From: Nonlabens ulvanivorans
GTDB taxonomy: Bacteria; Bacteroidota; Bacteroidia; Flavobacteriales; Flavobacteriaceae
Length of the DNA stretch: 64,000 bases
Reading direction: 5' to 3'
NCBI RefSeq assembly: GCF_000755285.1
Contig: NZ_BBMK01000001.1
Location: 124,001-188,000 of the forward strand
Shown: positions 1,735 through 63,373 of the stretch, piece after piece
Position numbering within the stretch: the stretch's first letter is position 1
Layout of the letters: each line of letters opens with the position of its first letter
Notes under the pieces: generated by a model
The model's database searches: none
Told to the model about the DNA's origin: nothing
Seen by the model: the letters and a program-made list of their open reading frames with translations, nothing else
Translations under genes and position numbers: made by a program

Positions 1735-3914
1735 ATGAGGTACTGGCCTTTCATCTTATTTCTTTTTTTAAGCATCCTTGTTAAAGCGCAAAAAGATGTA
1801 ACACCTGCATTAGAAATAATAAAATCCTGTATTGATTATAGCGCCTTTAACAATCCTTTAGAAGCATTAAATACATTTCAATATAATAGTTATGAAAACC
1901 TTAAGATAGCAGGGAATCCCGAAGCGATAACTGGATCTGGATACAAAAAGACGGAACTGAGAAGAACCTTACTTAAAACTGGCGTCTTTCTATCCGAAAA
2001 GACCTCTGAGATTGTCAACGATCAAATACAAGGCAATAAAGAGCTCATTACAGCCGCATTTATGCCTGGCTTTGAAAAACCAGTATATCCAATCTACAAT
2101 ATAAATTTTCAATCGCGCAATTTATATGAAAACACCTATGTTGTTTTTGACCAACATTATATAAACCCTATTTCCGTTAGCGGCCTTAATAGTTATAATT
2201 ATGAAACTATGGGCGACACTTTAATTGAAAATAGAGAAATCAATATAATTGGCTTTGCCCCTATTGAAACATCTACCTCTACTCTATCCGGTACACTCTA
2301 TATTGATCAAGAAACTAAGGCAATTGCAAAGGCTCATTATAATATATATAAAGACCTGAGAGTTGAAATCAAACACGATTTCACATACGACTCTTTACAT
2401 CATTTATGGTATTGCTCTTATAGCGAGCTTTTCATAAAAAAGACTAATAACGTTAAAGAGATAGAGCTTTTTGGTGGCCGTTTTGAGGTAGGTACACGCA
2501 ACCAAGATGAAATTGATAAAGACACAGATGAGCTTTATCTAATCATGAAAAGGTATCAAAATGATTTTAAAACTAATCGCAAGGTAAACTTTGGCAGAAA
2601 GGTGTCTCTATTGAGATTCCTGAAACTGCTGTTAATAAACCACTAAATTACTGGGACACCTATCGTAATGCAGAACCCTTCACAACTGAAGAACTAGCAA
2701 ATTTCATGCAGCTAGACAGCATAGTGATTGCAGAAAAAGTGACGCGTAAACTGGAAGTGATAGAAAAATTTAAAGTCGGTTATTATCCAGTTGGATTTTT
2801 TGATATAGACCTTAAATATCTAATAAAATTTAATGAATATGAGGCCTTCAGAATAGGTGTAGGAGGCACGACCAACGATAAATTTTCTGAGAAATGGCGA
2901 GTGAGTGGCTACGGCGCCTTCGGGACCAAAGACAAGGTATTTAAACACAATATTACTTTAGGATATAGAATTAGTGAAGAAAACAACACTTGGATTAGCG
3001 CCTATAAAACAGATGATATTAACGAATTTGCAGGAGCTCGATTCTTAACTGATGCGAGAGTATACTCGTTATTTGAGCCTCGATTAATTAACATACCGAC
3101 ATTTTACCTCTATAAAGAATATGGTGTATCCTTACAACAACGCTTGTTTCCTTCTGTAATTAGTGAGTTCTCGCTTTCGCGAAAGCGTATTTCACAAACC
3201 ACAAACTATGTATTTGCACCTGATGGTAATCCTTTTGTGAATTACACATTATCTGAGGCTACTGTTGCAGCTCGCTGGAGCCCTAAAAGCGAATTCATGA
3301 AAACACCAAAGGGATATCAAGAAACAATCAAAGGATATCCAATAATAAGTGGACAAATCACAAAAGGGATACAAGGCCTTTTAGATAGTGACTTTAATTA
3401 TTTAAAAATTTCCGGTAAAGCATCTTATACTATCAATAGAATAAATGGATCTAGAACAGCATTTTCACTTGAAGGTCATTATGCAAGTGGTGACGTACCT
3501 TTAAGTCATCTATTTCATGCATATCCCAACTCACCTACTAAAGATGAAGTACTGCAACGGTTCTCTGTAGCTGGTAGAAATAGTTTTGAAACTATGTACT
3601 TTAATGAGTTTTTCTCTGACCGCATCGCGACATTACAAATGCGTCACAACTTTGCACCTTTTCACATAGCATCATGGCTCAACCCAGAATTAGTTATTAC
3701 ATCTCGATATGCTATTGGAGATTTTAACGATACAGGAGATCATCTTAACATCGATTTTAACAGGCTTAATAAAGGCTATACAGAGTCAGGTTTTGAATTA
3801 AACAAGTTAATTTATGGTTTTGGGATTAGTGCAACTTATAGATATGGAGCTTATCATTTACCTCAATTTTCTGACAACCTAGCGCTTAAATTTACTTTCT
3901 ACCTAGAAATTTAA
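1735..3914 (+). CDS. DUF5686-family outer-membrane protein (frame broken near 2600)
   Basis: Resembles the large Bacteroidota family with an N-terminal periplasmic part and a C-terminal membrane barrel (DUF5686); its exact function is unknown. The N-terminus is a signal peptide ending VKAQ. The protein ends in alternating aromatic strands (LALKFTFYLEI), typical of a barrel. The first frame stops at 2646, but the next frame carries GVSIEIPETAVNKPLNYWD straight on; one missing A in the AAAGG at 2597-2602 would join them. The usual N-terminal carboxypeptidase-like domain is not obvious. One copy of the 16-bp palindrome is inside the gene at 3172. Confidence 0.72.
3172..3187. repeat. 16-bp palindrome, perfect copy, in coding DNA
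   Basis: CGCTTTCGCGAAAGCG inside the DUF5686 gene, read in the frame giving SLSRKR. Confidence 0.9.
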
Positions 3915-3956
3915 AATTCATACTCTCAAAAATCTGTATAAACTATCTTTAAAAGC

Positions 3957-3965
3957 TACCTTTGC
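3957..3965 (+). promoter_or_regulatory. -7 box for the MMPL exporter gene
   Basis: TACCTTTGC matches TAnnTTTG and lies 18 bases before the ATG at 3983. Confidence 0.5.
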
Positions 3966-3982
3966 AGCCCTGTTAAAGGACT

Positions 3983-6379: not shown

Positions 6380-6454
6380 ATAATATTTCGCTTTCGCTTA
6401 AGCATTATAACAACAATCCCTTTGATAATCATTGGCATTCCATGTCATAAAAAT

Positions 6455-6463: not shown

Positions 6464-6482
6464 TGTTCTTAAAAAATCGAGA

Positions 6483-7940: not shown

Positions 7941-7960
7941 ATAATCAACGCATAATATTT

Positions 7961-8100: not shown

Positions 8101-9558
8101 ATGCTTAGACAGTCGTTAAATTTCAAGCTATCACAAAAGCTTTCTCCTCAACAAATCCAGTTGATGAAGTTGATACAATTGCCTACACAGGCATTTGAAC
8201 AACGTGTTAAACAAGAGCTAGAAGAGAATCCTGCCTTGGACGATAGTAAAGATAGTCTAGATGATGATTATGATGAATTTTCTAATCAAGATGAATATGG
8301 TGATGAGAATGACACTATTGAAGCAGATATCAACGTCGATGAGTACCTGAGCGATGATGACATTCCAGAATACAGAACACAAGCAAATAATTACAGTGCA
8401 GACGATGATGAAAAAAGCATCCCTTATGCTTCTGGCACATCATTTACACAATCCCTTACTGATCAATTAAACACAAGAAGATTAAGCGATCAACATTATG
8501 GAATTGCTCAATTTCTAGTAGGTAGCATAGATAACAGTGGTTACATCCGTAGATCCATGGAGGACATTGCAGACGACCTCGCTTTTACTATGAATATCTA
8601 CACAGATGTAGTAGAAGTTGAACAAGTGCTAAAAGTGGTACAACAATTAGATCCTGCAGGTGTAGGCGCACGTGATTTACAAGAGTGTTTATTGATTCAG
8701 CTTTCGCGAAAGCGCAACAACGATAGCACAGAGCTAGCCATGAAGTTGGTGGGCGAATCCTTTGACGCATTTAGCAAAAAGCATTATAAAAAAATTCTGG
8801 AAAAGTATCATATCGAAGAAGATGAGTTGCGAGATGCGATTGAAGAAATAGAGCACTTAAACCCAAAACCTGGTAGTGCTTATGCTGGTGGTAGTACTAG
8901 AATGGTTGAACAAGTGGTTCCCGACTTTACGATACGTATTAAGGATGGAGAACTCGAACTTACTTTAAATGGTCGTAATGCGCCAGAATTGCATGTCTCT
9001 AGAGATTACTCTAACATGCTTAAGGGCTATAAAGAGGCTAAAGAAAAAAGCAAATCCCAAAAAGATGCTGTGATGTTCATCAAACAAAAGTTAGATGGTG
9101 CAAAGTGGTTTATTGAGGCCATTAAACAACGTCAGGAAACACTTTTTATGACCATGTCCTCGATTATGTATTATCAGAAAGAATATTTTCTAACAGGCGA
9201 TGAACGTAATTTAAGGCCGATGATTCTTAAAGATATTGCAGACGAAATAGGAATGGATGTCTCAACCGTATCACGAGTGGCAAATTCTAAATATGTAGAT
9301 ACACCATATGGTACTAAACTGATTAAAGAATTCTTTTCTGAATCCATGACCAACTCTGACGGTGAAGAAGTATCTACTAGAGAAATCAAAAAAATACTAG
9401 AAACAGTCATCGGTGAAGAAAGTAAAAGAAAGCCATTAACCGATCAAAAACTAGCAGAACTACTTAAAGAAAAAGGATATCCTATTGCTAGACGTACAGT
9501 TGCAAAATACAGAGAACAATTAGACATTCCTGTCGCTCGATTGCGCAAGGAAATTTAA
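8101..9558 (+). CDS. rpoN: RNA polymerase sigma-54 factor
   Basis: Sigma-54 that directs RNA polymerase to -24/-12 promoters and needs an AAA+ activator. Region I is the glutamine-rich LSPQQIQLMKLIQLPTQAF at residues 15-33. An acidic region II follows (about 50-100, rich in D/E). The core-binding and helix-turn-helix regions include IADEIGMDVSTVSRVANSKYV. The RpoN box ARRTVAKYRE closes the protein. It is 485 residues and intact. A palindrome copy lies at 8700. No sigma-54 activator gene is in the window. Confidence 0.96.
   Translation: MLRQSLNFKLSQKLSPQQIQLMKLIQLPTQAFEQRVKQELEENPALDDSKDSLDDDYDEFSNQDEYGDENDTIEADINVDEYLSDDDIPEYRTQANNYSADDDEKSIPYASGTSFTQSLTDQLNTRRLSDQHYGIAQFLVGSIDNSGYIRRSMEDIADDLAFTMNIYTDVVEVEQVLKVVQQLDPAGVGARDLQECLLIQLSRKRNNDSTELAMKLVGESFDAFSKKHYKKILEKYHIEEDELRDAIEEIEHLNPKPGSAYAGGSTRMVEQVVPDFTIRIKDGELELTLNGRNAPELHVSRDYSNMLKGYKEAKEKSKSQKDAVMFIKQKLDGAKWFIEAIKQRQETLFMTMSSIMYYQKEYFLTGDERNLRPMILKDIADEIGMDVSTVSRVANSKYVDTPYGTKLIKEFFSESMTNSDGEEVSTREIKKILETVIGEESKRKPLTDQKLAELLKEKGYPIARRTVAKYREQLDIPVARLRKEI
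8700..8713. repeat. Palindrome, intact 14-bp core, in rpoN
   Basis: GCTTTCGCGAAAGC flanked by A and G, so one outer pair is lost. It is read as QLSRKR in a variable part between sigma-54 regions. Confidence 0.85.
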
Positions 9559-16837: not shown

Positions 16838-16853
16838 CGCTTTCGCGAAAGCG
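16838..16853. repeat. 16-bp palindrome, perfect copy, between divergent genes
   Basis: CGCTTTCGCGAAAGCG lies in the 72-base gap between tatD and the retropepsin-like gene, next to both candidate -7 boxes. Confidence 0.9.
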
Positions 16854-18279: not shown

Positions 18280-18326
18280 ACACTCAAATTAATAACTCGG
18301 GTCGGGCACCCACAAATTTTAATGAT

Positions 18327-19373: not shown

Positions 19374-20099
19374 ATGAGCGTTTTTAAATTCAAAGAATTT
19401 GAAGTGACTCAAGATCGTTGTGCTCAAAAAGTAGGCACTGACGGTGTGCTCCTAGGCGCTTGGGCTTGTAAAAACAAAACTCCATACAACATACTAGACA
19501 TAGGAGCTGGTACAGGCGTTATTTCATTAATGCTTGCACAACGGTTTCATGGCGCACAGATAGAAGCTGTAGAACTGGATGAAGATGCATTTGAGCAAGC
19601 TGCTACTAACTTTGAAGAAAGTCCATGGGGGGGTAATCGCTTATTTTGTTTTCATGCCTCATTTCAAGAGTATTTTGAAGAAATAGATGAGACTTACGAA
19701 CTGATTATTAGTAATCCACCTTTTTTTGATTCTAGCAGTGTTAAAATAGATTCAGATATTAAAAAAAGCAGAGAGCAAGCACGTTTTGATGATGCATTAC
19801 CTTTTGAGGAATTAATCTACGGAGTCTATAAGTTACTAGATGACGATGGCATTTTTGCCTGTGTAATACCAAGTGACCGAGAGGACCATTTTTTGAGAAT
19901 TGCGGCTCATTATAAACTTCTTCCAGCACGCATTACACATGTAAAAGGAACTGAGGCTAGCTCTGTTAAGAGAAGCTTGTTAGAGTTACGTTTTCGCAAA
20001 AGCGAGATAGAAAGAGACCTACTTACTATCGAATTAAGTAGACATGAGTATACTAAAGATTATACTTGCCTTGTTAAAGATTTCTATTTAAAAATGTAA
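19374..20099 (+). CDS. trmN6: tRNA1(Val) adenine-37 N6-methyltransferase
   Basis: SAM-dependent methyltransferase of the YfiC/TrmN6 type. SAM motif I is LDIGAGTGVISLMLAQ near residue 40 and the N6-adenine catalytic motif is SNPPFF near 115. The start RCAQKVGTDGVLLGAWA is typical. A run of seven G at 19627-19633 gives SPWGGNR, one residue longer than SPWxxR in the family. A loose palindrome variant is at 19989. It follows rimM by six bases. Confidence 0.9.
   Translation: MSVFKFKEFEVTQDRCAQKVGTDGVLLGAWACKNKTPYNILDIGAGTGVISLMLAQRFHGAQIEAVELDEDAFEQAATNFEESPWGGNRLFCFHASFQEYFEEIDETYELIISNPPFFDSSSVKIDSDIKKSREQARFDDALPFEELIYGVYKLLDDDGIFACVIPSDREDHFLRIAAHYKLLPARITHVKGTEASSVKRSLLELRFRKSEIERDLLTIELSRHEYTKDYTCLVKDFYLKM
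19627..19633. repeat. G7 tract in trmN6
   Basis: Seven G; one extra in-frame Gly compared with the family motif. Confidence 0.55.
19989..20004. repeat. Palindrome variant (two changes), in trmN6
   Basis: CGTTTTCGCAAAAGCG: still largely self-complementary, since the two changes are symmetric partners apart from the outer pair. Confidence 0.5.
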
Positions 20100-22922: not shown

Positions 22923-22938
22923 CGCTTTCGCGAAAGCG
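22923..22938. repeat. 16-bp palindrome, perfect copy, intergenic
   Basis: CGCTTTCGCGAAAGCG, 20 bases after the stop of the alkyltransferase-like gene and upstream of mrp, on the downstream side of a minus-strand gene. Confidence 0.9.
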
Positions 22939-27546: not shown

Positions 27547-27562
27547 CGCTTTCGCGAAAGCG
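27547..27562. repeat. 16-bp palindrome, perfect copy, intergenic
   Basis: Lies in the 222-base divergent gap between the response regulator and the M36 peptidase. Nothing else is recognisable in this gap. Confidence 0.9.
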
Positions 27563-32389: not shown

Positions 32390-33362
32390 TTGTTTCAGTC
32401 AGTTTTTAATATCACCTCATCATCTAATTTTGAAGAAATGGCACTAGCCATCTTTAAACATCAATTAGATCACAACGCTGTGTATCATAAATACTGTCAT
32501 TTAATAGGAAGAACAATGCCAAAATCGGTAGACGAAATTCCATATCTTCCTATTTCATTTTTTAAAAGCCACCATATTGTTAGTAATACTAACAAGTCAC
32601 AAATTACTTTTACCAGTAGTGGCACCACAGGCACGACCACGTCTAAACATCATGTCTCTGATACTGGTGTATATGATTTAAGCTTGGATAAAAGCTTTGA
32701 AATCACTTATGGTAATCATCAAGAGTATGCTGTACTCGCATTATTACCACATTATTTAGAACGCAGTGGATCTTCTTTAGTCTATATGGCACAACGCTGG
32801 ATAGAAAAGAGTAAACATCCATCTAGCGGTTTCTATCTTAACAATATAGATGAACTTGCACAGGTACTTAAAGCTTTACAACAAGAGAATCAAAAAGTCA
32901 TTCTTATAGGAGTCACATTTGCCCTACTTCAACTAGCAGAAAAGTTCCCTCAAGAATTACCCCCAAACCATCATCATTGAGACTGGTGGAATGAAAGGCA
33001 TGCGCAAAGAAATCATCAAACAAGAGCTGCATGATATTTTAAAATCCGCTTTCGCGAAAGCGAGTATACAAAGTGAATACGGGATGACAGAGCTGTTATC
33101 ACAAGCATATGCTAGCGATGGTATCAACTTTACCACGCCGCCGTGGATGAAAGTGAGTACCCGAGATACTAATGATCCACTAAGCTTATTAAAATCCTCA
33201 AAAACTGGTGGACTTAACATAATAGATCTAGCTAACTATAATTCCTGTTCCTTTATTGCTACACAAGATCTAGGTAAAGTATTACCCGATGGCACTTTTC
33301 AAGTTCTAGGAAGGTTTGATCAGTCTGATATAAGAGGCTGCAATTTGATGGCTGTGGAATAA
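32390..33362 (+). CDS. LuxE/PaaK-like acyl-protein synthetase (frame broken at 32960)
   Basis: An adenylate-forming enzyme of about 323 residues related to LuxE, which activates a fatty acid and passes it to a protein Cys. Visible are TFTSSGTTGTTTSKH (nucleotide loop), ALLPHYLERSGSSLVYMAQ, ETGGMKGMRKEI and EYGMTELLSQAY. C5 at 32960-32964 has one C too many; four give ELPQTIIIETGG. No LuxCD/AB genes are nearby, so this is not a luminescence locus. In flavobacteria such genes may serve O-antigen or lipid synthesis; the substrate is unknown. The start is a TTG. Confidence 0.74.
32960..32964. repeat. C5 tract with a +1 shift, in the LuxE-like gene
   Basis: Five C where four restore the frame. 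Confidence 0.6.
33047..33062. repeat. 16-bp palindrome, perfect copy, in the LuxE-like gene
   Basis: Read as SAFAKAS in a helical surface region. Confidence 0.9.
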
Positions 33363-34746: not shown

Positions 34747-35747
34747 ATGATTTTAGTAACTGGCGGCACTGGACTAGTAGGTGGACATTTGTTATACCGC
34801 TTTTGCGAAAGCGGAACTCCAACAAGAGCGATATATCGAGATCTTAAGAGTATCGATAAGACACGTGATATATTTAATTCTTATGGTGCTAACAAAGACC
34901 AGTTAGTCGACGATATAGAATGGGTACAAGGCGATATTCTAGAAATCCCAAGCTTGAAGAAGCCATGGATGGCATTACACAAGTTTATCACTGCGCAGCC
35001 ATTGTAGATGGCGCTCCTTTTTGGCAAATGAAAAAGGTCAACGTAACGGGCACATCTAATGTTATCAATACCGCACAAGCTCATCAAATAGATAAACTAT
35101 GTTATGTCAGTAGTATAGCAACACTGGGCGATCCAGTTGGACAACGAGCTATAAATGAAGAAGACTTTTTTAATCTAGACGCAAAAAACAGTAACTATGC
35201 CATTTCAAAATACGGTGGCGAGATGGAAGTATGGCGTGCAACTCAAGAAGGGATGAATGTTGTTATAGTTAATCCTGGTGTTATTATAGGTGAAGGAAAC
35301 TGGGAAAGTGGATCTGGAAAATTATTCTCTCAGACGTATAGAAAACAACCTTTTTATACGGATGGATCTAGTGGTTTTGTAGATGTAAGAGATGTCACAA
35401 ATGCGATGATACAACTTATGAATTCTGATATAGTAAATGAACGTTTTATTATCGTTCATTCATCGATTCATTATAAAGAGATTTTAAATAAGATAAGTCA
35501 TAGCTTAAAAAAGAAAGCACCTAAGATCATGGTCCCTAAATGGATGCTATATCTCATATCTGCAACGATGAAGGTAGGCCACTGGATAGGTTTTAATAGA
35601 GGCCTAGAACGTGCTACCGTTCAATCATTAACCTCTCACAGTAAGTATGACGGTTTAAAGATTAAAGAGCATGTAGATTTTAACTATACACCTATCGACA
35701 AAAGCATCCAGCGAGTAAGCGATTACTACTTAAAAAATTTAAAATAA
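34747..35747 (+). CDS. NAD-dependent epimerase/dehydratase family protein (frame broken near 34950)
   Basis: Extended short-chain dehydrogenase with the Rossmann motif LVTGGTGLVGGHLLYRF at the start, the CYVSSIATLG region and YAISKYGGE (catalytic YxxxK) near 160. The first frame runs off at 35007; one base restored at 34947-34952 gives ILEIPKLEEAMDGITQVYHCAAIVDG and continues to 35747. About 333 residues. Such proteins act on nucleotide sugars or dihydroflavonol-like substrates; the substrate here is unknown. Palindrome variant at 34798. Confidence 0.8.
34798..34813. repeat. Palindrome, one change, in the epimerase gene
   Basis: CGCTTTTGCGAAAGCG: C to T at position 7; read as YRFCESG. Confidence 0.7.
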
Positions 35748-39722: not shown

Positions 39723-39726
39723 TATT

Positions 39727-39740
39727 ACGTTCGCGAAAGC
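39727..39740. repeat. Degenerate palindrome after hemD
   Basis: ACGTTCGCGAAAGC keeps the right half exactly (TTCGCGAAAGC) and has lost the left. Weak. Confidence 0.35.
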
Positions 39741-39754
39741 ATCATTTATAAACA

Positions 39755-41933: not shown

Positions 41934-43296
41934 ATGCGTGATATACTGATTATAGGTGCAGGTAAATCAACTGGAGTACTAGTCGATTATCTTTTAAAAA
42001 AATCAGAACAAGAGAACTTAAAGCTCTTAATAGCAGATAAAAACATAAATCAAGCAAAGTTACTAGGACAAAATCATAAAAATGTGGAAGCTGTTGAGCT
42101 GGACATTTTTAATGAAGAGCAACGCAAATCTTATATAGAAAAAGCATCAATTGTGATATCAATGCTGCCAGCAAGATTCCACATTGAAGTAGCAAGAGAT
42201 TGTGTTACTTATGGAAAATCAATGGTTACCGCCAGTTATGTAAGTCCAGAAATGCAGGCCTTAAATGAAAGCGCAATAGAAAAGAATCTTGTTTTCATGA
42301 ATGAGATAGGTGTTGATCCCGGTATTGACCATATGAGCGCCATGCAAGTACTAGATAGGATAAGATCACAAGGTGGCAAAATATTATTATTTGAGTCCTT
42401 CACCGGTGGTTTAGTTGCTCCTGAAAATGATGATAATTTATGGAATTATAAATTCACTTGGAATCCTCGTAATGTCGTTACCGCAGGTCAAGGTGGTGCA
42501 GCAAAGTTTATTCAAGAAGGACAATATAAATATATACCGTATCACAAATTATTTAGAAGAACTGAATTTCTAGATGTAGATGGCTATGGCCGATTTGAAG
42601 CGTATGCTAATCGAAATAGTTTAAAATACCGTTCGGTATATGATCTCGATGACATTCTTACTTTATATCGAGGTACAATGCGTCGTGTGGGGTTTAGCAA
42701 AGCTGGAATATGTTTGTTCAACTAGGAATGACTGATGACACTTATATCATTGAAGATTCTGAAAACATGAGTTACAGAGATTTTGTGAATAGCTTTTTAC
42801 CATATTCACCTACAGACTCTGCAGAACTAAAAATGCGTCACGTTCTTAAAATCGATCAAGATGATATCATGTGGGATAAATTGGTAGAATTGGACTTATT
42901 CAACGCTACTAAGATGGTAGAATTAAAAGAAGCTACACCTGCACAAATCTTGCAAAAAATTCTTGAAGATTCATGGACCTACAAGATGGAGAAAAGGATA
43001 TGATCGTCATGTATCATAAATTTGGTTATGAACTTGATGGTGAGAAAAAACAAATAGATAGCACAATGGTCTGTTTAGGTGATGGCAAAATGCAAACCGC
43101 AATGGCAAAGACAGTTGGCCTACCTGTTGCGATTGCAGCTCTTAAAATTTTAAATGGTGAGATAACCACACCTGGAGTGCAAATACCTATTACAGCTCCT
43201 ATTTACGAGCCCATTTTAAAAGAGTTAGAAGATTACGGGATTCGCTTTCACGAAAGCGAGATGGAGTATCTAGGATATAACCCAATAAGCTTATAG
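41934..43296 (+). CDS. Saccharopine dehydrogenase family protein (two frame breaks)
   Basis: NAD(P)-dependent oxidoreductase with Rossmann motif ILIIGAGKSTGVLVDYLL, then MNEIGVDPGIDHMSAMQVLD and FESFTGGL typical of saccharopine reductase/dehydrogenase. Two single T losses, near 42703-42705 and 42978-42981, cut the frame into three. Restoring them gives about 455 residues ending LGYNPISL, the family length. With glutaryl-CoA dehydrogenase elsewhere in the window, lysine breakdown is a plausible role, though the genes are 20 kb apart. A palindrome variant lies at 43243. Confidence 0.83.
43243..43258. repeat. Palindrome, one change, in the saccharopine dehydrogenase gene
   Basis: CGCTTTCACGAAAGCG: G to A at position 9; read as IRFHESE. 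Confidence 0.75.
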
Positions 43297-44612: not shown

Positions 44613-46701
44613 TATCTGTACGCAGACCTATATTTAACCATGTCGTACTTTGTTCCTGTACATTTCCAATCTCAAAATGAGGATCAAAATCTCTATAAAT
44701 GATCTGGCCATAGATTCTCAATTGACTTGCTGGATTAATTAAATAACCAGCTTCTAATTGCGCATACATAAAGGTCACTCTGTTACCTTGACCTAACTCG
44801 TTACCATTATCAGCAATACGATCATCTTCACTACGGTATATATCGCCACCATAAAAAGCGTTATCAATCCCATCGTTAATGTCTAGTCCTCTTTCACCTA
44901 GAGTGAATTGGGCATTACCATACCATCTATCTTTAGTGTACCTTCCTATAAAAGTAGTTTCATAAAAGTTTGCGCCCCCATGGATGTGCTAGTGCTTGAT
45001 TACTATTAGCATAATTAAGCACAACAGTATTGTGACTATAGGTATATGGTCGCACTCTATTATACTCTGCCTGTAGCATTAAATCTTTTATTTTGAATGC
45101 ATTTTGCCATTTAAGGCCTAATTGAAATGCACTTTTGTTTTGATAACTACCATCACCATTCACTACAGATGCTCCAGAAAATTCGTCTAATACTAACTGT
45201 GCATAACCTGTGATTCTATCTGTAAATTTATACTTTGCTGTAGCTCCTATTAAAGCATTTCCACCTCGAGAGCCTGTTTGTAACTCAATAGCTTGATAAA
45301 ATATAATAGGATTTAAGTAATTAAAATCAAAGCCGCGTTGATTATCATCCTGCCACAACACACTTTCAAAAAGTCCTATGTTAAGCTTTTCCGTTGCATT
45401 CCAACTTAGGTAATGATGAACCATAAATTTTGTGCGGAAAGAATCATCTGCTGTTACCTCAGACCTTACATCTCTTAAAGATGTGTATAAAACAGTATAG
45501 TCTAATTTCCAAAACTTAGCATTTACTTTTGCATATGGAAATGGTTGTGAATTATCACTAAGAACTAATGATCTATAACCATCGCCTATAAAATGTTGTC
45601 CATGACCTAATTGAAGATCAAAGTACTTACTAGGTTTATAATTAATATAACCTGTTGCTACAGGATAATCGTAAATAGTTTCTCCGCCATCTTCTGCAAT
45701 GCCACGTCCCGGTACAACACCAGGATTTCCACCATCTGGTGCACGACTTTCAATTTCTCTATTGAAATAACCAGCAAAACGTCCTTGACTTTCTTGTATA
45801 CTAGCACCAAATGTTATTTGCTTACCTATTCCTCCACTAACGTTAACAAGCCTTGTGTTGTTAAAGGTGTTAATATCATCACCACTATCCTTACCTATTT
45901 GTAAATCTACTCCTGGATCAACTACAAACCAGTAATCATCGCCTGCTAATTCAAAAAAGTGTTCGTTCCACCATTTTTTACCTAGCCACGTAGACTCGTC
46001 CTTCATTAAAGATACTCTCTCCGCCTCAAGGTCAAAGTACTGATCCACATATGAAAATGTATATGGTTTCACGGCAGTATGAGCATTATTCCCTACTCTA
46101 TTCATAGCCGCTTCATATCTATGATATCTTTGGTTTGATAAAGCTATTAACCCATTAGACTTTAATTGTTGTCCTTTATATTGATTTGAGATTATTTGTG
46201 GGTATTCTTTATTCGCTTTCGCGAAGCGATACTATCTAAAGCATTTGAACTTACTGCAGCTGCACTTTTTTCTTGTTCTTTACCGTTGAAAACCTGGAAA
46301 GAACCATCAGGTGTCATGGGAACTGGCACTCTTAATACAAATTGCATGTATGTAGGGTTACCATTATAAGTAGGTGCTGCAATTATTGGTAATTTTTCAA
46401 AAGAATTCTTCACTGCTGTGGTAAGCTCTGCATATACTGCGTCAAAACGAATTGGAATAAATTTACCTTCGCGATTTACTTCAAATCGCAATGTCACTTT
46501 CTCACCATCGTTTAAGGGAAGTTGTTCCGGATGCTCATAATTTTTATAAAGAGCTGCATATAAATTGTTGTAAAAACAATCTTCTAATTGATTAACAGGC
46601 AATTCTTTACACACTTCAAAATATGGAAATTTTTCAACCGGATTTTGAGCCATTGATATCCCTATACTAAACAAACTTATAATCAGAAATAAATTCTTCA
46701 T
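44587..46701 (-). CDS. remB: RemB-like gliding-motility protein (TonB-C-like N-terminus plus outer-membrane barrel; two frame breaks)
   Basis: Rebuilt, this is one protein of about 705 residues. After a signal peptide comes a TonB-C-like module (FPYFEVCKELPVNQLEDCFYNN...LRVPVP), then a long barrel with NNAHTAVKPYTF, GRFAGYFNR, GHGQHFIGDGYRSLVL and a strand-rich C-terminus. This resembles RemB of flavobacterial gliding. Break one is in the palindrome at 46214: putting back its missing base joins ALDSIAFAKANKEYPQ in frame. Break two is C5 at 44975-44979; four give HPWGANFYETT. It sits just downstream of two TonB genes. Confidence 0.68.
44975..44979. repeat. C5 tract with a +1 shift, in the RemB-like gene
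   Basis: Five C where four restore the frame. Confidence 0.6.
46214..46228. repeat. Palindrome lacking one base, in the RemB-like gene
   Basis: CGCTTTCGCGAAGCG: 15 bases. Restoring the perfect 16-mer restores the reading frame, which implies the gene holds a full copy. Confidence 0.8.
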
Positions 46702-49363: not shown

Positions 49364-52300
49364 CTAATTACCAAAGGTATATCGCAATGTAATCCCGCTT
49401 CTAACTGTCGTCTGTGGAAAAGCAGTAGAAATCGCAAATTCTGAGAATGTATGATCATAATAAAATATAGCTGTAAATGCCTGACTCAAGTTATAATCTG
49501 CAGTAAATTTAAGTCCATAAATAGTCTGACCAGCTGTAGCCTGACTAGCATCTGTAAAGATCCCATTCTGTAAATTCTCTTCAGTTCCTAAGTCTAGATA
49601 TCTAATGATAGTTACATTATCTCTTATAGAACCATCTAATCGCATATTTAAATCACTTTTAATAATCTGACTACGACCACCAACATTAGTTTTAAACTTG
49701 AGGTCTTTTATACGATAACCTAATCCCAGAATGAATTCGTTTCCATTAATCTCAGTCAATAAATTATTATCAAAACTTAAAGAAACTACTCTATCCTTTC
49801 TTACTTCCGCAGCTATAGATACAGAGTTTTTCATCTCAAAGTCCAATTTAATTAATGGACTGAACTGCTCTGATAAATTGATATTAAAAAACAAATTACG
49901 AGACTTAAAGTCACCTGTCTGGTTTAAGGCGTCAGGGCTTTGGTCACTATACGTTAAATTTCTGTTTCCAGCAGAGTAGTCTAGATTCGTTTGAAATTGA
50001 TTAACGGTATAACTAGACCTATATCCATGATTTATAGAGAATCTACGGAATCTTTTTCTGAACCATTTAAGATTCATTAATCCTGTGTATTTAATAGTCC
50101 AGTTAGGTAAAGGTATATCTTTAAACGCACTAGTCTTCTGATCTTTTGCATCACGACCTTCATATGCCGCTAGGAAAGCCGGCAATAACACATCCTGACT
50201 GTTCCTACTAAATCCTTCCGGATAACCGTCTGCGTCACGAGAGTAAGTCGTGTTACCATAAAACTGTTCTGCCAGTCGTTCTGCAATTACAAGTCTATTA
50301 TTTCTAAAATTATCAAAGTTTTTAGATCCATCTATCGTGCTTTTATTAAAAGCCGTACCAATCATGTTTGTAGTAATACTATAATTACCAAAAGTGTTAG
50401 GTGTTAATGATTGATAGGTTAAGTTCTCTGGATCTACTCTATAATTCTCTGTATAGGTTTCTTGATAAGCTCTATTTCCTACTAGGTCAATTTTTAAATC
50501 CTTTAATAAATCAACATTGACATTGACATCTAATTGACGGCTTTCTACCTCGCTATATTGTTGATTAAAATCTTGAAATAAAGTCAACCAACCTTTTCTA
50601 GCAGCAACATCTCTAATCTCTGCCTGAGAACCAAAAGTAAATCCTGTGGTAGGTTTTAACGTTCCTATAAATCCTATTGACGGCGTATAACCTGGTAAAA
50701 AGATACCGTTATTTTCCTGATAATTAATTTGCGCTCTCTTTACAGAGGTTGCAATACCTATTAATGTGTTATAGGCTTTATTACCAAAATTCTTTTTAGG
50801 TGTTTTATCTTTTTCTTCTTGGGTATTTGCGGCACCTGGTGTTGATGGTCTAGCATTTCTAGACCTTGTATTATTGCGGCTACGAGCTCTACTTGTTGCT
50901 GGACCGAATTTAACCTTCTCAAGCCCTACATATTTATACAACTTATCTAAGTCTAATGTGGTATTTAATCGATGTGTATTAGCATTTTGCACAGTGTTCC
51001 CTAAATCAGGAATACCATCCAATTGTGCAAATTGTTGTGAGTTACGTTGCCAGTTAAAGTCTGCTGTGTAGGTGTAGCTCGCTTTCGCGAAAGCAAGAAA
51101 TGGAAACTTATCAAACGGTAATTTATAAGTCATTTGCAATTGCTGCGAGTGCGAGTTAGGAATACCTTCATCTAGAAAATCCGTCCATATTCCATAACTC
51201 TCGTCAATAGAATCATCATCATTAATATAACTGCGCACAACACGGTCATTATTTGCAGATAGATTAAATTGTAATGATTTTGTAATATCCCAGTTAATAG
51301 CATATTGATGATTCATTGTGTAATTGCGGTTAGACAATGGATCTATAGTAATATTTTGAGCATCAGGAATACCATCACCATTAGTATCTACAGGATTAGT
51401 ATCCAATTGAAGGTCTCTAAACTTCTGTGTGTTGTATTGTCTTAAAATATTACCGCTGGCCGCAAAACTATTAGGTAATAAATTCACATTAAAGTCTTTT
51501 AAAAACTTCATGTATTTGTTTTCACCAATCAAATTTTTAAATGGCTCCACCTCAGCTTTAGGAAAAGCATAGTTATATGTGGTTCCCACATTAACCGATT
51601 GATCTTGAAATTTCTCAATTTCAAAATTGCGTTGATCTGTTTGATTATAAGAACCTGAAAAAGTGAAATTCTCAATATCATAAGGCATAGGTTTTGCATC
51701 ACCGGTGCGCTCTTTGCGCACGCCGATAAGGTTTACACTTTGACGCATGGTATAATCTTCAGATTGCTCTCTAATAATTTCACGCTCTGCATCACTAGTA
51801 GCGTTATCTAATCTGGTTTCTAATTCTATATCTTCAAATTGAGGATCAAATTGTGGCGTGACAGTTTCTTCTCCTATACTATAAGAGAATGGCAATTTAA
51901 CGCCCCCATTTTTCTGGAAGTAACTGACCTAAATTAAGATTAGTAGTTACATCATATTGAGTTACATTTTCACGATCTCTTTCATTAGGACCTTGTTCTA
52001 TCGCTCCAAAACCAATGGTACTTCTTCTTCCTGTAGCACTTACACTTGCAAAATCTGCAATGTTTGCATCCATATTCATCACTGCTGCATATCCACCTTG
52101 GTTCTTTAAACCTGATAGACGCATTTCATTAAACCACACTTCTCCACAAATATCATTTGTACTGGCATTGCGCACACCAATCATCATCGCTCTTACATCT
52201 CCAAAATTAGGATTCCCTTTTATACCATATATGTGTTGATTAGGGCTTCCTGCAGTCGCATCAGTAAGTGTGGACTCATCAAAGAAATTTACTTGAGAAA

Positions 52301-55300: not shown

Positions 55301-56630
55301 GAGTATTTAAAGTAAACTCATTATCAGTAAGTTTTCTTGCATTCTCTAATGTTACATAATCAAATCCTTCATTTACTTGAGCACCTCCAAAACCAGATTG
55401 CACCGTAGAGATATCTCTAATTGCATCTGTTAATATAGATTGTGCTGCTCCATTTATTCCTCGAGGATTAAAGTCGTTATTTTCATTGGATGGAAAACTA
55501 CCAGCTGGCGCATTTAGAAAACCACCAGGCACAGTTCCCAATCCTATATTATCAGGATCAGATTCTCCTATATCTTGAACTGCTACTAGATTTCTGACAT
55601 CTTGTGTTCTATTACCGCGGTTTGTAATCCAAACTTCAGCTCTAGTGATTTGAATGTTTGTATTGATAAATGGGTAATTAGCTAACGTTTTATCATAATT
55701 ATCGCGGAAATAATGTGACAGAAAATAATGTCTATTCTCATCATAATCTAATGAGAAAAAATCAAAATCATTAACAGACGCTCCACCAGCAGCTTGTACC
55801 GTTCTAGATTCGGACTGCTGTTCTGAGAATACACCTGTGATTCTCGTTTTACCAAATTGCAATTCTGCCTTAACACCAAAAAGACTCTGAGCACCACGTA
55901 TTAATGTAGAATTCAAAGGCATACTAATATTACCTACCTCTATACTTTGTAAGATGTCGTCTTCTGTAGGAGTATAATCTAATTTGATTTGATTTTGAAA
56001 GTTGAAGGTACTTTGCGTGTCATAATTTGCATTTACATTTAAACGCGTTCCTACTTTCCCTACTAAACTTAGATTGATACGTTGATTAAAATCAAAAGTA
56101 GCATTAGATCTGTTACGTGGTGAAAAACTAGGATTGTCTGATTTATTAAACAACATTCCTAAGTCAACTTCTACAGAACCTTGTGGCACCACTGATATCT
56201 CAGTACCGCCAAAAATACTTTCAAATAAATCTGAATCGACGTAAAAATTAGGTAATAAGTTCTTTTGCTTTTCTTTGTCGGCTTCTGTTTTACCAGCAAT
56301 AGCGGCCGCTTTATCCTTAAAATACTGAGTCATGCGTTCTTTCATCACACGATCCAGATATTGCTCACGCGTTAACATGAAAGGGTATCCAATTTGAAAA
56401 CCATTGAATTCACTCTTATAGATATATCGATCTAAGTCCGGATCATAAGTGTAAAGAGTAACAATACTCGGTGGATCTGGCAACTTTATATCACCTATTA
56501 TAACACCAGTTTTAGTACTGTCTTGTGCCGTTGTAGGTGGTGGTTGTTGCGCTTTCGCGAAAGCGAATATCAAAAAACATCCAAAGAATGCTACATACCT
56601 ATTGAAAAGTTGAAGAGAACTATATTTCAA
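49364..56630 (-). CDS. sprA: SprA, outer-membrane translocon of the type IX secretion system (frame broken at 51903)
   Basis: A giant outer-membrane barrel of about 2,420 residues that forms the T9SS pore. The first frame (1,577 residues from a TTG at 56630) ends LLPEKWGR; the next carries on PFSYSIGEETVTPQFDP to 49364. C5 at 51903-51907 with one C removed joins them as EKWGVKLPFSYS, the usual SprA join. The signal peptide contains a palindrome copy at 56550 read as FAFAKA; a second copy is at 51080. It follows ruvA by three bases. It would export the M36 and lamin-tail proteins upstream. Confidence 0.95.
51080..51095. repeat. Palindrome, one change, in sprA
   Basis: CGCTTTCGCGAAAGCA: intact 14-bp core, last base changed; read as LAFAKAS on the coding strand. 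Confidence 0.85.
51903..51907. repeat. C5 tract with a +1 shift, in sprA
   Basis: Five C where four join the two sprA frames. Confidence 0.65.
56550..56565. repeat. 16-bp palindrome, perfect copy, in the sprA signal peptide
   Basis: Read on the minus strand as IFAFAKAQQ, at the end of the signal peptide. Confidence 0.9.
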
Positions 56631-59673: not shown

Positions 59674-59689
59674 TGCTTTCGCAAAAGCG
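59674..59689. repeat. Palindrome, two changes, intergenic
   Basis: TGCTTTCGCAAAAGCG between maeB and the fructokinase terminator. Confidence 0.55.
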
Positions 59690-59710
59690 TGAACTTAAAG
59701 AAATAATCAA

Positions 59711-59746
59711 AAAAAAGAGCTATAAAATGAATTACAGCTCTTTCTA
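59711..59746 (-). terminator. Terminator after the sucrose-type operon
   Basis: AAAGAGCTGTAA / TTATAGCTCTTT hairpin on the minus strand followed by seven T. Confidence 0.7.
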
Positions 59747-59761
59747 ACAAAACTAAGCTAA

Positions 59762-60696
59762 CTAAACAATATCATTAATAATATTTTTAAGACCTACCAT
59801 ATCGGGTAGACGACCAACGTTCTGTAATTTTATAGTAGCGAGTTTTTGCGCAATAGTTATAGACTCTTTTAGGGACTTTTCCTGAATTTGAGCATATAAA
59901 AATCCTGCCCAGAAGGCATCACCAGCGCCGGTTACATCTTTAATATCATCAATTTTTATAGCGTCTTGATGTATAAGCCCTTTATCAAGATCAGAAATGG
60001 TAACACCATCTTTACCTCTTGTAAGGCAAATAGTTGAAACTCCTAAAGCATGGAAATAATCAAAAATTTCTTGATCTGATTTATGACCGTCAAAGTACCT
60101 ATAACAATCATCTATACTTAACTTAAGCAATGGATTATAAGATAAATACTCTCTGATCACCTCTTTAGCTTCATCACGATTAGGCCATATTTTTTGTGAA
60201 TAATTAAGGTCTATACTTAACTGTAACCCTAACTTACTTGCCTCTTTTGCTCCTTTTAAAATTGAGGTTCTCGCAGGTTTTTGCTTAAAGCGAAACAGGT
60301 GGTGTGATAAATTTTTGAGGATTTTAGTAATTCAGAGGTAATTAAGGTTTCAGGGATAATACAATCAGCCTCTCTGTAGGCTGTAAAATCAGGTGTTTCC
60401 ATAGATTTAGAAACTAATATGATAGAAGTAGGTAATCCCGATGTTCTATTAATTAGTGATGTATCTACGTTGTCATCTTGTAATTTTTTTACAATAAAAT
60501 CACCTAAACCATCATTTCCACAAGAAGCCACTATAGCCGACCTTAATCCTAATCTTGCTGCATTTACTGCCACGTTTGTAGGTGACCCACCTAAGAAACG
60601 ATGGTAATCTTTGGTTTCTGAGATAGTAGCATTTTTCTCATGACCTATAAAGTCAATAAGAACTTCTCCTGTACATAATATATCAATGGTCTTCAC
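59762..60696 (-). CDS. PfkB-family sugar kinase, probable fructokinase (frame broken near 60280)
   Basis: About 311 residues of the ribokinase/PfkB fold. The start DILCTGEVLIDFIGHE and FLGGSPTNVAVNAARLG are the N-terminal PfkB motif; DVTGAGDAFWAGFLYAQ near the end is the second, with the catalytic Asp. A missing base in TTTTT at 60278-60282 splits it; restoring it reads FALSKKPARTSILKGAKEA. Its substrate is inferred as fructose because it follows an invertase-like gene. It overlaps that gene by one base. Confidence 0.83.
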
Positions 60697-61874
60697 TAGT
60701 TGACTAATATTTTAAATTTATTATTTAAAGTTTGATGCAGGATTACAGCTCCTGCGGCACTCCACGCGCATTTCGGCACACCTATAGGCTCGCCTGTCTT
60801 GGTATGAAAATTTTCATAAAAAGAAAATTCTTTCTGCTCATTTAAACGATTTACATTTTTCAATAATTCTTGAGCAATATTATCATGTCCCATATGAGCC
60901 AAGGCTAAACCATAAAAACCATTTACCATCGGCCAGCTGCCAGCATTATGAAATTCATATGGAAAATTCCTAAATTCATATTTGCAGTTATCCTTCAACA
61001 AATTCCACTCTTCATCTTCCTCCATAACTGGTGGCCAAAAAGCAGGTAATACTTTAAGTATAGTTTTAGATAATAAATTCTGACTATATGAGATGATGTT
61101 TTCTCTCAATTCTTGAGTCCCTAAATCTAGCATCACAAACAAGCTATTTGCAAAAGCATCGTATTGCGTTTTATAACCAGATGGTGAAAATGACGCTGGT
61201 AGATAACTTTTCTTATCCATGGCTTCATAAGCTCTAGGATGAAATTTATCGGAGTCTGAATCACCTATAAAATTTATATACAACTGCTCTTCAATAGCTA
61301 TAATCTTATTGCTAACATCTTTGTTGTTCTCAAAATGATTATAGCTTTTTAATGCCCATAATCTTAAAAGCTGATCGTATAAAACATATCCGTCAGTGAT
61401 GTATTCATCTGCCCAGTTACCAGATAATGGGACGTACATTAAATGCTTATTATTAAATTCCCATGCATTTAACAACGCCAGACATTTATCGATATGTGAT
61501 TTATAAGTCTCTACAATTTGATGATCTTGCTTATAATGTGCTAGCTGGCAAACTCCTATAATAAACCAAGTTACCGCATCTACTCTACCTGCTAGACCAC
61601 CATAACTAACTTCTACTTTCTTGCCTTTAAAAGCAACATTTGATGGAATAGTGCCTATTTCATGCTGATGGGCAGCCAGTGTATGAATTGTTTTTTCAAA
61701 AGTTTTGATCAGTTCATCATCACCAGAAGCTAGTGCTGCTAGCCCACAAATTACTCCATCTCTAGACCAGACCCTTTTATAATTTGAGATATCTAGAGCA
61801 CTTGCGAGAAAACCATTGGTAGATGACGCTTTACGAAGTAACTCAATAGATTTTATGTAATGATTGCTATTCAT
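60696..61874 (-). CDS. GH100-like glycosidase, probable neutral/alkaline invertase
   Basis: A 392-residue all-helical enzyme without signal peptide, hence cytoplasmic. Motifs resemble GH100 plant and cyanobacterial invertases: YKRVWSRDGVICGLAAL near residue 32 (catalytic Asp in VWxRD), GRVDAVTWFIIGVC, and EFHNAGSWPMVNGFYGLAL near the end. I infer splitting of sucrose to glucose and fructose. The family match is by motif, not search; another helical-barrel glycosidase is possible. It overlaps the sugar transporter by eight bases. Confidence 0.65.
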   Translation of the reverse strand: MNSNHYIKSIELLRKASSTNGFLASALDISNYKRVWSRDGVICGLAALASGDDELIKTFEKTIHTLAAHQHEIGTIPSNVAFKGKKVEVSYGGLAGRVDAVTWFIIGVCQLAHYKQDHQIVETYKSHIDKCLALLNAWEFNNKHLMYVPLSGNWADEYITDGYVLYDQLLRLWALKSYNHFENNKDVSNKIIAIEEQLYINFIGDSDSDKFHPRAYEAMDKKSYLPASFSPSGYKTQYDAFANSLFVMLDLGTQELRENIISYSQNLLSKTILKVLPAFWPPVMEEDEEWNLLKDNCKYEFRNFPYEFHNAGSWPMVNGFYGLALAHMGHDNIAQELLKNVNRLNEQKEFSFYENFHTKTGEPIGVPKCAWSAAGAVILHQTLNNKFKILVN

Positions 61875-63175
61875 TTACAATAGATTTTTTAGTTTGAATA
61901 AACATCGTCGCTACGGTAGCAAGAATTAATAATACACCGGCAAATGTGATTGCATTGCGAGGATCATTTCCTAAAAAGTTTTTTAATACGTAACCAAAGG
62001 TTAAAGTTTGAAAAATCATAGGAATTACAATCATCATATTTATGATACCCATGTAAACGCCATAACGCTCTTTAGGAATATTAGAAATCACCATGAGATA
62101 AGGAATACCCATCATACTTGCCCATCCTATACCAAATCCAGTTATAGCAAATAGCAACAAGTTTTTATCTGCTATATGAGGAAATGCTAGAAATCCAGCC
62201 GCAGCAAGTAGCAAACAGACTGAATGAACTAATTTAGGACTGTACTTTTTTGCAAAGCCTACAAGTGCAAAGGCTACTAAAAATGTTACAACATTATACC
62301 AGCCATTTACTAAAGCTGTCCAACTCACCGCTTCTTCATAAGCTGCTTCATTACTTGCTGGTGTAGCATTCCACACAGATAGCGCAACACTTTTTGATGA
62401 ATTTTGCCAGTAACAGAATAATGCATACCATTGGAAAAGGTAAACTAAAGCTAGTTGCCACATAACCTTAGGCATATCCTTTATTGCAGAGGCTATTTCT
62501 ACAAATGGACCTAATACTGATCGTTTTTCACTGCGCATTAAAGCTAGTTCTTCATCTGTAGGCGGAATCTCTTTAGTCTTGCTGATGCTCCATAAAATTG
62601 TAGCTATGGAGCAAAATGCACCTAGAAAAAAAGAAGAAGCATAAACCCATGTAGCAAAGAGCCTGTTTTACCGACTATGAAAATCGGAAAAATGAAAATG
62701 GAAAGATTTGCAAGCACCTGTCCTAAACCAGTGAAAAAACTTTGCATTTGAAAGCCAGTCGGTTGTTGTTCAGGTATCAACTTATCAGCAATTAAAGCTC
62801 TGTAAGGTTCCATAGCTGTATTATTTCCCGCATCAAGAATCCATAATAATCCAGCTGCCATCCATAAAGAACTGCTAAAGGGAAAAAGTAATAAACTCAC
62901 ACTACATAATAAGGCACCTATCAAAAAATAAGGTTTACGCCTCCCAAATTTAGGTGACCATGTTTTATCACTCATCGCACCTATAATGGGCTGGACTAGT
63001 AATCCAGTTACAGGTCCTGCAAGATGTAAAATAGGAATTTGATCCGGTGCCGCTCCCAAAAAATCATAGATTGGAGTGACCGCACTTTGTTGTAATCCAA
63101 AACTGTATTGAATCCCAAAAAACCGACATTCATATTCAAAATTTGCCAGAAGTTTAATTTTACTTTCCCTAACAT
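61867..63175 (-). CDS. Sucrose/maltoside-type sugar symporter, GPH/MFS family (two frame breaks)
   Basis: A 12-helix inner-membrane transporter of about 436 residues. The loop IGAMSDKTWSPKFGRRKPYFLIGAL closely follows the plant sucrose-transporter loop (SDR...RFGRRRPF). Two single T losses, near 63117-63122 and 62656-62658, break the frame; restoring them gives GFFGIQYSFGLQQSAVTPIYDF at the first helix and GSLFATWVYASSFFLGAF at mid-protein. I start at the ATG at 63175. With the invertase- and kinase-like genes it forms an operon for uptake and breakdown of a sugar, most simply sucrose. Confidence 0.75.
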
Positions 63176-63357
63176 ATGGTTTTTCAGTTTTAAAAATTTA
63201 TGGATGTTTTACACCAAGAGATTAAAGCAACATTTACTTACACCATTAAATAATAGAGTTAGTATCAAATAAATAACACTAACTCCATTACACTATTGAA
63301 AACAAAAAACTAACTGATTCTTATCTGTCGTTAAGAGTATATGATTTGTTGAATATG

Positions 63358-63373
63358 CGCTTTCGCGAAAGCG
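63358..63373. repeat. 16-bp palindrome, perfect copy, intergenic
   Basis: In the 238-base gap between the transporter gene and the receptor gene. Apart from it I see no clear element in this gap. Confidence 0.9.

What the first reader, a model, noticed from the sequence alone, without database searches (positions are those of the whole stretch)
3172..63373. A 16-bp perfect palindrome scattered through the chromosome
CGCTTTCGCGAAAGCG occurs perfectly at 3172, 16838, 22923, 27547, 33047, 56550 and 63358. Its 14-bp core also occurs at 8700 and 51080, and near copies lie at 34798, 43243, 46214, 59674, 19989 and 39727. A given 14-mer is expected about 0.0002 times in 64 kb. Copies lie both in genes and between them, and near copies often keep dyad symmetry. 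This resembles the highly iterated palindrome of cyanobacteria (HIP1) rather than a mobile REP element, since flanks differ and no transposase is near. Roles such as nucleoid-protein binding, a methylation site or a DNA-uptake tag are inference.
Basis: partly seen in the sequence, partly recalled or inferred. Interest (0 to 1): 0.72.

Follow-up and report, generated by a model that had tools for sequence, protein, structure and literature searches.

The report
Evenly spaced palindromic chromosome tag
Marine bacteria of the genus Nonlabens, and some relatives such as Dokdonia, carry hundreds of copies of one 16-letter mirror-image DNA word, spaced unusually evenly and preserved over evolution, perhaps a tag by which cells recognise the DNA of their own kind.

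Summary
CGCTTTCGCGAAAGCG occurs 7 times exactly in the window (0.000002 expected) and 372 times in the genome. All 23 genomes of the genus (Nonlabens) have 180-737 copies; a looser form is abundant in a Dokdonia MAG and two other genomes. Elsewhere in the family and phylum samples it is absent or a stray; 16 of 20 stray stretches read were metal-efflux or conjugation genes.

The 16-mer is the core of a two-sided motif of about 46 bp (T-tracts outside the core). Copies are more even than random, are the best-conserved 16-base windows of sprA across 19 genomes, change mostly by point mutation, are enriched between genes, and occur in some phage contigs at roughly host density.

The HIP1 analogy is only partly right: two tag-rich genomes have no match to any of three methyltransferase families. 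The pattern fits uptake sequences of Haemophilus and Neisseria better, in an order where Riemerella is competent and one species prefers its own DNA. But uptake was not tested, no reader protein was found, no recombination footprint was seen, and known uptake sequences are not palindromes. A chromosome-organising protein is the main rival.

The parts
3172..3187 (.). exact tag, in a gene, read as LSRKR
16838..16853. exact tag, between genes by the ATG-based ORF caller (one search lists GTG- and TTG-start ORFs that would touch it)
22923..22938 (.). exact tag, between genes
27547..27562 (.). exact tag, between genes
33047..33062 (.). exact tag, in a gene, read as AFAKA
56550..56565 (.). exact tag near the start of SprA (51897-56630, minus strand), where it reads AFAKA in a signal-peptide-like stretch; exact in 17 of 19 Nonlabens genomes
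   Evidence: the crude ORF caller put it in a short opposite-strand ORF
63358..63373 (.). exact tag, between genes
8699..8714 (.). tag with 1 mismatch (14-mer core intact)
34798..34813 (.). tag with 1 mismatch
43243..43258 (.). tag with 1 mismatch; G003 has the exact tag at the aligned place
51080..51095 (.). tag with 1 mismatch, inside the C-terminal part of SprA (49364-51895); exact in 16 of 19 Nonlabens genomes
19989..20004 (.). tag with 2 mismatches
59674..59689 (.). tag with 2 mismatches, upstream of the malic enzyme gene; G008 has an exact tag there with the same left flank
6389..6404 (.). weak site, 3 mismatches, possibly a decayed tag
46214..46228 (.). decayed tag with a one-base deletion; G003 has the intact tag here
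39726..39741 (.). probably a decayed tag, 4 mismatches

Best explanation
The palindrome is a self-DNA tag of the uptake-sequence kind. A receptor of the natural-transformation machinery, probably acting as a symmetric dimer, binds the motif on free DNA (CGCTTTCGCGAAAGCG, with on each side a short AT stretch, a T/A tract and GG/CC) and favours its uptake. When tagged fragments recombine into recipients the tagged allele wins, so tags build up by point mutation plus biased recombination, at places where their translation (AFAKA, RFRES or LSRKR) or an intergenic position does little harm. A second tag close to an existing one adds little uptake, so tags end up evenly spaced at about the length of the fragments exchanged. 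Shown here: abundance, restriction to a few genera, T-rich flanks on both sides, even spacing, DNA-level conservation of the core, change mostly by small mutation, one tag-poor defence island, presence of comEC and of a DUF5689 protein. Inferred: that uptake is the process, that a dimer reads the tag, and that spacing reflects fragment length. No reader protein was identified.
For: Peaked on the perfect word: 53 exact, 24, 11 and 4 with 1, 2 and 3 mismatches in 364 kb of G000; of 8 shuffled palindromes two give a single 3-mismatch hit and six give none. Flanks C-poor and T-rich, in coding and intergenic sites alike, and on both sides of single sites: of 11 flank positions the weaker side matches 4.55 on average, against 2.23 for the weaker of two background pieces. 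Gap CV 0.65 and 0.61 in G000 and G003 against 0.99 and 0.97 at random, 0 of 2000 simulations as low. In G001 0.55 against 0.92 without the stretches round a tag-poor island; 0.83 against 0.99, 71 of 2000 as low, with them. Treangen et al. (PMC2397512; abstract and passages) report that Neisseria DUS spacing matches conversion-fragment length. 37 of 49 aligned G000 tags are exact in G003 (38 if one misplaced alignment gap is allowed for) against 23.4% of 20,193 non-overlapping 16-mers. In sprA codon alignments of 19 genomes the tag and its shifts are the only windows conserved in 14 or more (C-terminal part, 2358 windows) or 11 or more (N-terminal part, 4356 windows) genomes. 84 of 247 tags are intergenic though 9-11% of the DNA is (crude ORF caller). 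The largest gap among the exact tags listed for the first 500 kb of G001 (34.5 kb) holds Wadjet JetA, JetC and JetD genes. ComEC in 22 of 22 and DUF5689 in 20 of 20 genomes searched; Riemerella anatipestifer needs a ComEC and a DUF5689 protein for transformation (PMC8459023, passages), and R. columbina prefers its own DNA (PMC7965970, passages).
Against: Known uptake sequences are not palindromes (PMC1939737, passage). ComEC and DUF5689 occur equally in tag-poor or tag-free relatives, so nothing found in the machinery tracks the tag. The DUF5689 protein of G000 is no closer to that of tag-bearing G227 (40%) and G211 (39%) than to that of tag-poor Leeuwenhoekiella (42%) (orthology to the Riemerella protein not tested). 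Divergence between G000 and G003 shows no trend with distance from tags (identity 0.88-0.89 from 100 to 3000 bp), so no recombination footprint; and the bases 9-30 from the centre are no better conserved (0.84-0.91) than DNA further off, which is weak support for a read flank. Some phage contigs carry tags at roughly host density, which uptake alone does not require. No paper on competence of Nonlabens or Dokdonia came up.
Confidence: 0.5

Rival explanations
1. The tag is the binding site of an intracellular dimeric protein that organises the chromosome: evenly spaced anchors, every 4-7 kb in the genomes read, for compaction, segregation or domain borders.
For: Long two-sided motif suits a dimer with flank contacts. 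Even spacing in G000 and G003, and 3-6 tags in each of 20 evenly drawn 20-kb samples of G001. DNA-level conservation over the genus. Phages carry it.
Against: No visible regional trend in those 20 samples, unlike matS or Noc sites (recalled). Sites are unusually exact for a binding site: 53 of the 92 within 3 mismatches are perfect. Copy number varies widely: 255 to 737 among genus genomes at least 90% complete; the lowest of all, 180, is from one 78% complete.
Confidence: 0.27
2. A self-mark read by a defence or repair nuclease: DNA with the tag is spared (a role like Chi), so chromosome and resident phages keep it.
For: 11 of 30 virus contigs with the tag hold two or more exact copies (several share the same tag contexts, so they are not independent); one 37.4-kb tailed-phage contig has 6, one of them in its terminase gene. 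Spaced copies would protect fragments of any origin.
Against: Chi-like sites are oriented and not palindromic (recalled). Some of these contigs may be prophages that share in host DNA exchange; one encodes an integrase. A stretch of 34.5 kb without an exact tag persists in G001 (it has near-tags).
Confidence: 0.1
3. A HIP1-like product of a methyltransferase and mismatch repair: methylation inside the palindrome biases repair so that the full word accumulates.
For: GC-rich palindrome; 12 of 24 single-mismatch copies in G000 differ at one of the two outermost bases, a bias like that described for HIP1 (PMC4390886, abstract).
Against: PF00145 in 6 of 12, PF01555 in 8 of 12 and PF02086 in 3 of 12 of the well-complete tag-bearing genomes searched; G009 and G010 have none of the three. 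The flanks reach about 17 bp beyond the core, long for a methylation site.
Confidence: 0.07
4. A dispersed mobile palindrome (REP or MITE type) that inserts as a unit.
For: Many identical short palindromes in one genome.
Against: Among aligned places where only one of G000 and G003 has the exact tag, the other mostly shows a near-tag with point changes or small indels, not an empty site. Most copies lie inside genes.
Confidence: 0.02

Closest known systems
USS of Haemophilus influenzae / DUS of Neisseria
   Same: Many nearly identical copies; change by point mutation (reported for USS); scarce in newly acquired DNA; enriched outside genes; spacing linked to exchanged fragment length (PMC7811141 and PMC2397512, passages). 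AT-rich flanks of USS: recalled.
   Different: Here the motif is a perfect palindrome with flanks on both sides, about 4-7 kb apart in the genomes read rather than about 1 kb; the phylum is Bacteroidota; no uptake data, no receptor known, no recombination footprint seen.
HIP1 of cyanobacteria (GCGATCGC) and alternate HIPs
   Same: Short GC-rich palindrome, iterated through the genome, variants mostly at the ends.
   Different: No methyltransferase of the three families searched tracks it; core 16 bp not 8; flanks; density 0.14-0.22 per kb in the Nonlabens stretches.
Noc and ParB sites (NBS, parS), matS
   Same: Palindromes of similar length on a chromosome, read by dimers (recalled).
   Different: Those sites are far fewer, regionally biased and more degenerate (recalled); here hundreds, without visible regional trend, and exact. 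No such reader was looked for.
REP/BIME elements
   Same: Palindromic, many copies (recalled).
   Different: REPs are extragenic (recalled); here about two thirds are inside genes and sites change mostly by point mutation.

Membership tests
DNA uptake sequence (DUS/USS) | Genome-wide over-representation, peaked on the exact word | tested here: met
DNA uptake sequence (DUS/USS) | Evolves by point mutation, not insertion | tested here: met
   of 12 non-exact G000 tags 10 are 1-2 mismatches in G003; of 10 non-exact G003 tags 6 are; the rest are gaps, one of them an alignment artefact and one a 45-bp insert. (For Neisseria DUS, PMC2397512 argues that many arise by recombination.)
DNA uptake sequence (DUS/USS) | Scarce in newly acquired segments | tested here: inconclusive
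   One case, the Wadjet-bearing stretch of G001 with no exact tag and 2 within 2 mismatches in 20 kb; that it is newly acquired is inferred; not tested genome-wide
DNA uptake sequence (DUS/USS) | Recombination footprint near sites | tested here: not met
   flat divergence between G000 and G003; only one species pair (87.5% identical), so within-species exchange was not examined
DNA uptake sequence (DUS/USS) | Host has competence machinery | tested here: met
   ComEC 22 of 22, DUF5689 20 of 20; but also in tag-poor and tag-free genomes. Other components not searched
DNA uptake sequence (DUS/USS) | Promotes uptake or transformation | not testable with these tools
   needs an assay
DNA uptake sequence (DUS/USS) | Non-palindromic word (true of known ones, not of necessity) | tested here: not met
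   The word is a perfect palindrome
HIP (HIP1 and alternate HIPs) | Highly iterated palindrome | tested here: met
HIP (HIP1 and alternate HIPs) | Cognate DNA methyltransferase in the genome | tested here: not met
   no match to PF00145, PF01555 or PF02086 in G009 and G010; other methyltransferase families not searched
HIP (HIP1 and alternate HIPs) | Methylated in vivo | not testable with these tools
   no methylome
REP/MITE | Inserts as a unit, empty sites in relatives | tested here: not met
   for one pair of genomes
Chromosome-organising site (parS, NBS, matS type) | Bound by a known nucleoid protein | not tested
   no candidate reader was found or searched for
Chromosome-organising site (parS, NBS, matS type) | Regional bias (ori or ter) | tested here: not met
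   3-6 per 20 kb in 20 samples of G001 from 420 kb to 3.1 Mb; ori and ter were not located

The most novel reading that the evidence does not exclude
The tag is an evenly set chromosome-wide ruler: every few kb a dimer of an unknown protein sits on a symmetric motif of about 46 bp and divides the nucleoid into near-equal segments, and phages of these hosts have evolved the same marks so that their DNA is handled as chromosome.
Probability: 0.2. Interest if true: 0.92.

Novelty: new variant of a known kind. Interest (0 to 1): 0.75.

Why it matters
If it is an uptake tag, it would be, as far as I recall, the first such system in Bacteroidota and the first palindromic one. It would give a handle on how Flavobacteria choose DNA, a question left open by the Riemerella work (its k-mer search stopped at 10 bp; PMC7965970, passage). 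The even spacing would make the debate about drive and selection of uptake sequences measurable, since spacing should follow exchanged fragment length. Tags in metal-efflux and conjugation genes of other genera would mark gene flow out of tag-bearing bacteria. If it is a chromosome-organising site instead, the spacing would be a rare sequence-encoded ruler.

Tried and rejected
Mobile repeat: rejected because the relative mostly shows near-tags, not empty sites. Transcription terminator: intergenic tags roughly follow the share of tandem, convergent and divergent spacers, most tags are inside genes, and the flanks are T-tract left and A-tract right, the reverse of a bidirectional terminator. 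Methyltransferase link. A tag-specific gene at the comEC locus: 11 genomes read, the locus is largely syntenic in tag-bearing and most tag-poor ones, and I saw nothing tag-specific (only 10 proteins of one genome were profiled). Recombination footprint: none. Other genera with other tags: 80 named loci (79 not Nonlabens, some short) scanned for repeated 10- and 12-mers; the Dokdonia MAG has a looser form of this tag, and a few other loci have repeats that were not followed. BLAST of the extended motif against phage and plasmid records: only chance-level matches (best E 0.6 and 2). Dropped before a count: three stretches of G001 round the island (L074-L076) in the spacing test; put back, where the evenness of G001 becomes weak (71 of 2000). 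Literature: no report of this word, or of an uptake word in Flavobacteriaceae, (open-licence PMC only; 77 lists 7 papers seen as titles and abstract starts; 78 listed 12 of 2,527, none with Dokdonia; some returned none). R. columbina's own k-mer table is seen in a passage.
Full report
OBSERVATION. CGCTTTCGCGAAAGCG is in the window at the seven places named, with seven more sites within three mismatches; shuffled sequence gives 0.05. Expectation is about 2e-6 per 64 kb and 1e-4 per genome. The two listed near copies that exceed three mismatches (46214, 39727) look like decayed tags; at 46214 the relative G003 has the intact word.

EXTENT. The genome (G000, 3.09 Mb, 25 contigs, 86.9% complete) has 372 exact copies, the reversed control none. 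All 23 genomes of the genus have 180-737. In 249 family genomes 32 have a match: three of this genus, G211 (153), G227 (630), and 27 with 1-12 copies. In 395 phylum genomes 11 have a match, and all but G000 have 1-2. With the looser GCTTTYGCRAAAGC, 133 of 299 family genomes match, but only G000 (519), G017 (630), G022 (677), G211 (410) and G227 (899) exceed 22; the Dokdonia MAG behind L138 has 423, and 14 other genomes behind named loci have 0-9.

NAMES. Contig C1 of G016 has 1,027,445 bases, as has the contig of uncultured Nonlabens sp. 105-3Z behind L104, and the malic enzyme rows are identical, so I take the genus to be Nonlabens. On a quick tree of 101 malic enzyme proteins G227 pairs with the Dokdonia MAG (SH-aLRT 100) and G211 with Leeuwenhoekiella (99), itself tag-poor; the tag label needs three changes, at least two of them forced by well-supported branches. 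One origin with losses and several origins both remain open; it is a one-gene tree.

ANATOMY. In 364 kb of G000, stretch by stretch: 53 exact, 24, 11 and 4 with 1, 2 and 3 mismatches, then background (a 54th exact copy spans a join and is counted). Of the 24 single changes 12 are at the two outermost bases. Counted over both strands, the left flank is C-poor to about -17, T-rich at -12 to -8, T or G at -6 and -5, A at -4, T at -3 and -2 (86% T at -2 in intergenic sites), G-enriched at -15 and -14; the right flank mirrors it by construction of that count. The flanks appear in 162 coding and 83 intergenic Nonlabens sites, in 20 G227 sites, and weakly in 18 G211 sites. Scored separately over 247 Nonlabens sites, left and right flank match the 11 positions 5.33 and 5.47 times on average against 3.12 in background; the two sides are uncorrelated (0.045), and the weaker side (4.55) is well above the weaker of two background pieces (2.23), so the motif is two-sided (the positions were chosen from the same sites, so the size of the effect is inflated).

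PLACE. 163 of 247 tags (G000, G003, G001; the G000 and G003 stretches are mostly orthologous, so not independent) are coding though 89-91% of the DNA is, by a crude ORF caller. Reading frames: AFAKA 93, RFRE 46, LSRK 24. AFAKA sits in the signal-peptide-like start of SprA.

SPACING. Gap CV is 0.65 and 0.61 in G000 and G003 against 0.99 and 0.97 at random, 0 of 2000 simulations as low; no gap is under 1.5 kb, where 19-20% are expected. With one mismatch allowed CV falls to 0.46 and 0.43. For G001, 0.55 against 0.92 (0 of 2000) was computed without the three stretches at 280-340 kb that I had fetched because of the gap there; with them CV is 0.83 against 0.99, 71 of 2000 as low, owing to one gap of 34.5 kb. 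Twenty 20-kb samples 140 kb apart on G001 from 420 kb on hold 3-6 tags each, variance/mean 0.15, 1 of 20000 simulations as low; all 33 G001 pieces together give 0.51, and contiguous stretches of G003, G000 and G001 0.51, 0.36 and 0.62. So spacing is clearly under-dispersed outside the island, and 0.15 is partly luck. Mean gaps are 6.7, 7.0 and 4.0 kb; genome averages in the genus range from about 4.4 kb to about 11 kb among genomes at least 90% complete (from the counts and rounded sizes), so the figure of 4-7 kb is for the genomes read.

CONSERVATION. Between G000 and G003 (329 kb aligned, 87.5% identical) 37 of 49 G000 tags and 37 of 47 G003 tags are exact in the other, one more in each if a misplaced gap is allowed for, against 23.4% of 20,193 control 16-mers. 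Divergence shows no trend with distance from tags, and the bases next to the core are no better conserved than the rest. In 19 Nonlabens genomes the tag in the SprA C-terminal part is exact in 16 and that near the start in 17; the tag and its shifts are the best conserved of 2358 and 4356 16-base windows (windows ungapped in at least 18 genomes). Upstream of the malic enzyme gene many genomes have a tag while its surroundings differ; positional homology there was not proven.

STRAYS. Of the 27 stray family genomes I read 20 stretches from 16. In 11 the tag lies in RND, OEP, metal-ATPase or FUR-type ORFs (L041-L045, L047-L050, L052, L054), in L051 in a CusB-like gene, in four in TraN-like genes (L046, L055, L056, L060); L053, L057 (DUF3570), L058 and L059 were not placed. 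Representatives were checked with profiles: CusA/CzcA, OEP, copper P-type ATPase, FUR, CusB-type, and TraN below its curated cut-off; the others were assigned by likeness of the printed context. Gene flow from tag-bearing donors is an inference.

VIRUSES. 30 virus contigs (41 stretches) hold the exact tag, 11 of them two or more. Seven stretches have GC above 0.5 and may be chance. Contig 3300040781_000495 (6 tags in 37.4 kb) encodes terminase, portal, head and sheath proteins, with tags inside the terminase and portal-like genes; L283 has portal, head and tape-measure genes; L258 a tape-measure-like protein and an integrase; L256 a portal. The stretches held are cut round matches, so contig length is the fair base: 0.10-0.17 per kb in the four richest by count (6, 4, 3, 3). 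Hosts and lifestyles were mostly not determined.

MECHANISM. A methylation origin is disfavoured: three methyltransferase families are patchy and G009 and G010 lack all three. The uptake reading rests on analogy: exactness, point-mutational change, intergenic enrichment, spacing and one tag-poor stretch with Wadjet genes are traits reported for USS or DUS (PMC7811141, PMC2397512, passages). Machinery is present but not specific. Relatives in the order show competence and, in R. columbina, preference for own DNA (PMC7965970, PMC8459023, passages). Palindromy, phage carriage, the flat divergence and the unremarkable flank identity are not predicted. I give uptake 0.5, a chromosome-organising protein 0.27, a nuclease self-mark 0.1, methylation 0.07, a mobile repeat 0.02.

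Noticed in passing
window 49364-56630 (minus strand): SprA is split into two ORFs (1577 and 843 aa) that match consecutive parts of one profile. In most relatives the two tblastn parts lie 6 bases apart against 4 in the window, which suggests an indel or assembly error in this draft genome.
   Followed up: partly
G003 at the place of G000:C25:63805 (L029:3805): A 45-bp insert of an ACTTCGACTGCGCTCAGTG-type repeat splits a tag in G003; a similar repeat follows the tag at L040:3512.
   Followed up: no
L273, L290, L283, L258 (IMG/VR contigs): Tailed-phage contigs carry the tag at roughly host density, one copy inside a terminase large subunit gene.
   Followed up: partly
L041-L045, L047-L050, L052, L054; L046, L055, L056, L060: Copies in tag-poor genera sit in metal-efflux genes and in TraN-like genes; three genomes share a spacing of 933 bp between two copies: a likely trace of horizontal transfer.
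   Followed up: partly
L075 (G001:C4:300001-320000): Wadjet defence genes (JetA, JetC, JetD by PADLOC models) in a stretch without an exact tag, with 2 sites within 2 mismatches.
   Followed up: partly
window 18288-18323: S16-Flavobacteria ribosomal protein leader just above the Rfam cut-off (35.9 against 35.7 bits, E 2).
   Followed up: no
L122, L131, L145, L171 (Flavobacterium loci), L176 (Lutibacter MAG): Other 10-12-mers repeated three or four times within 22 kb, possibly local repeats or other tags.
   Followed up: no
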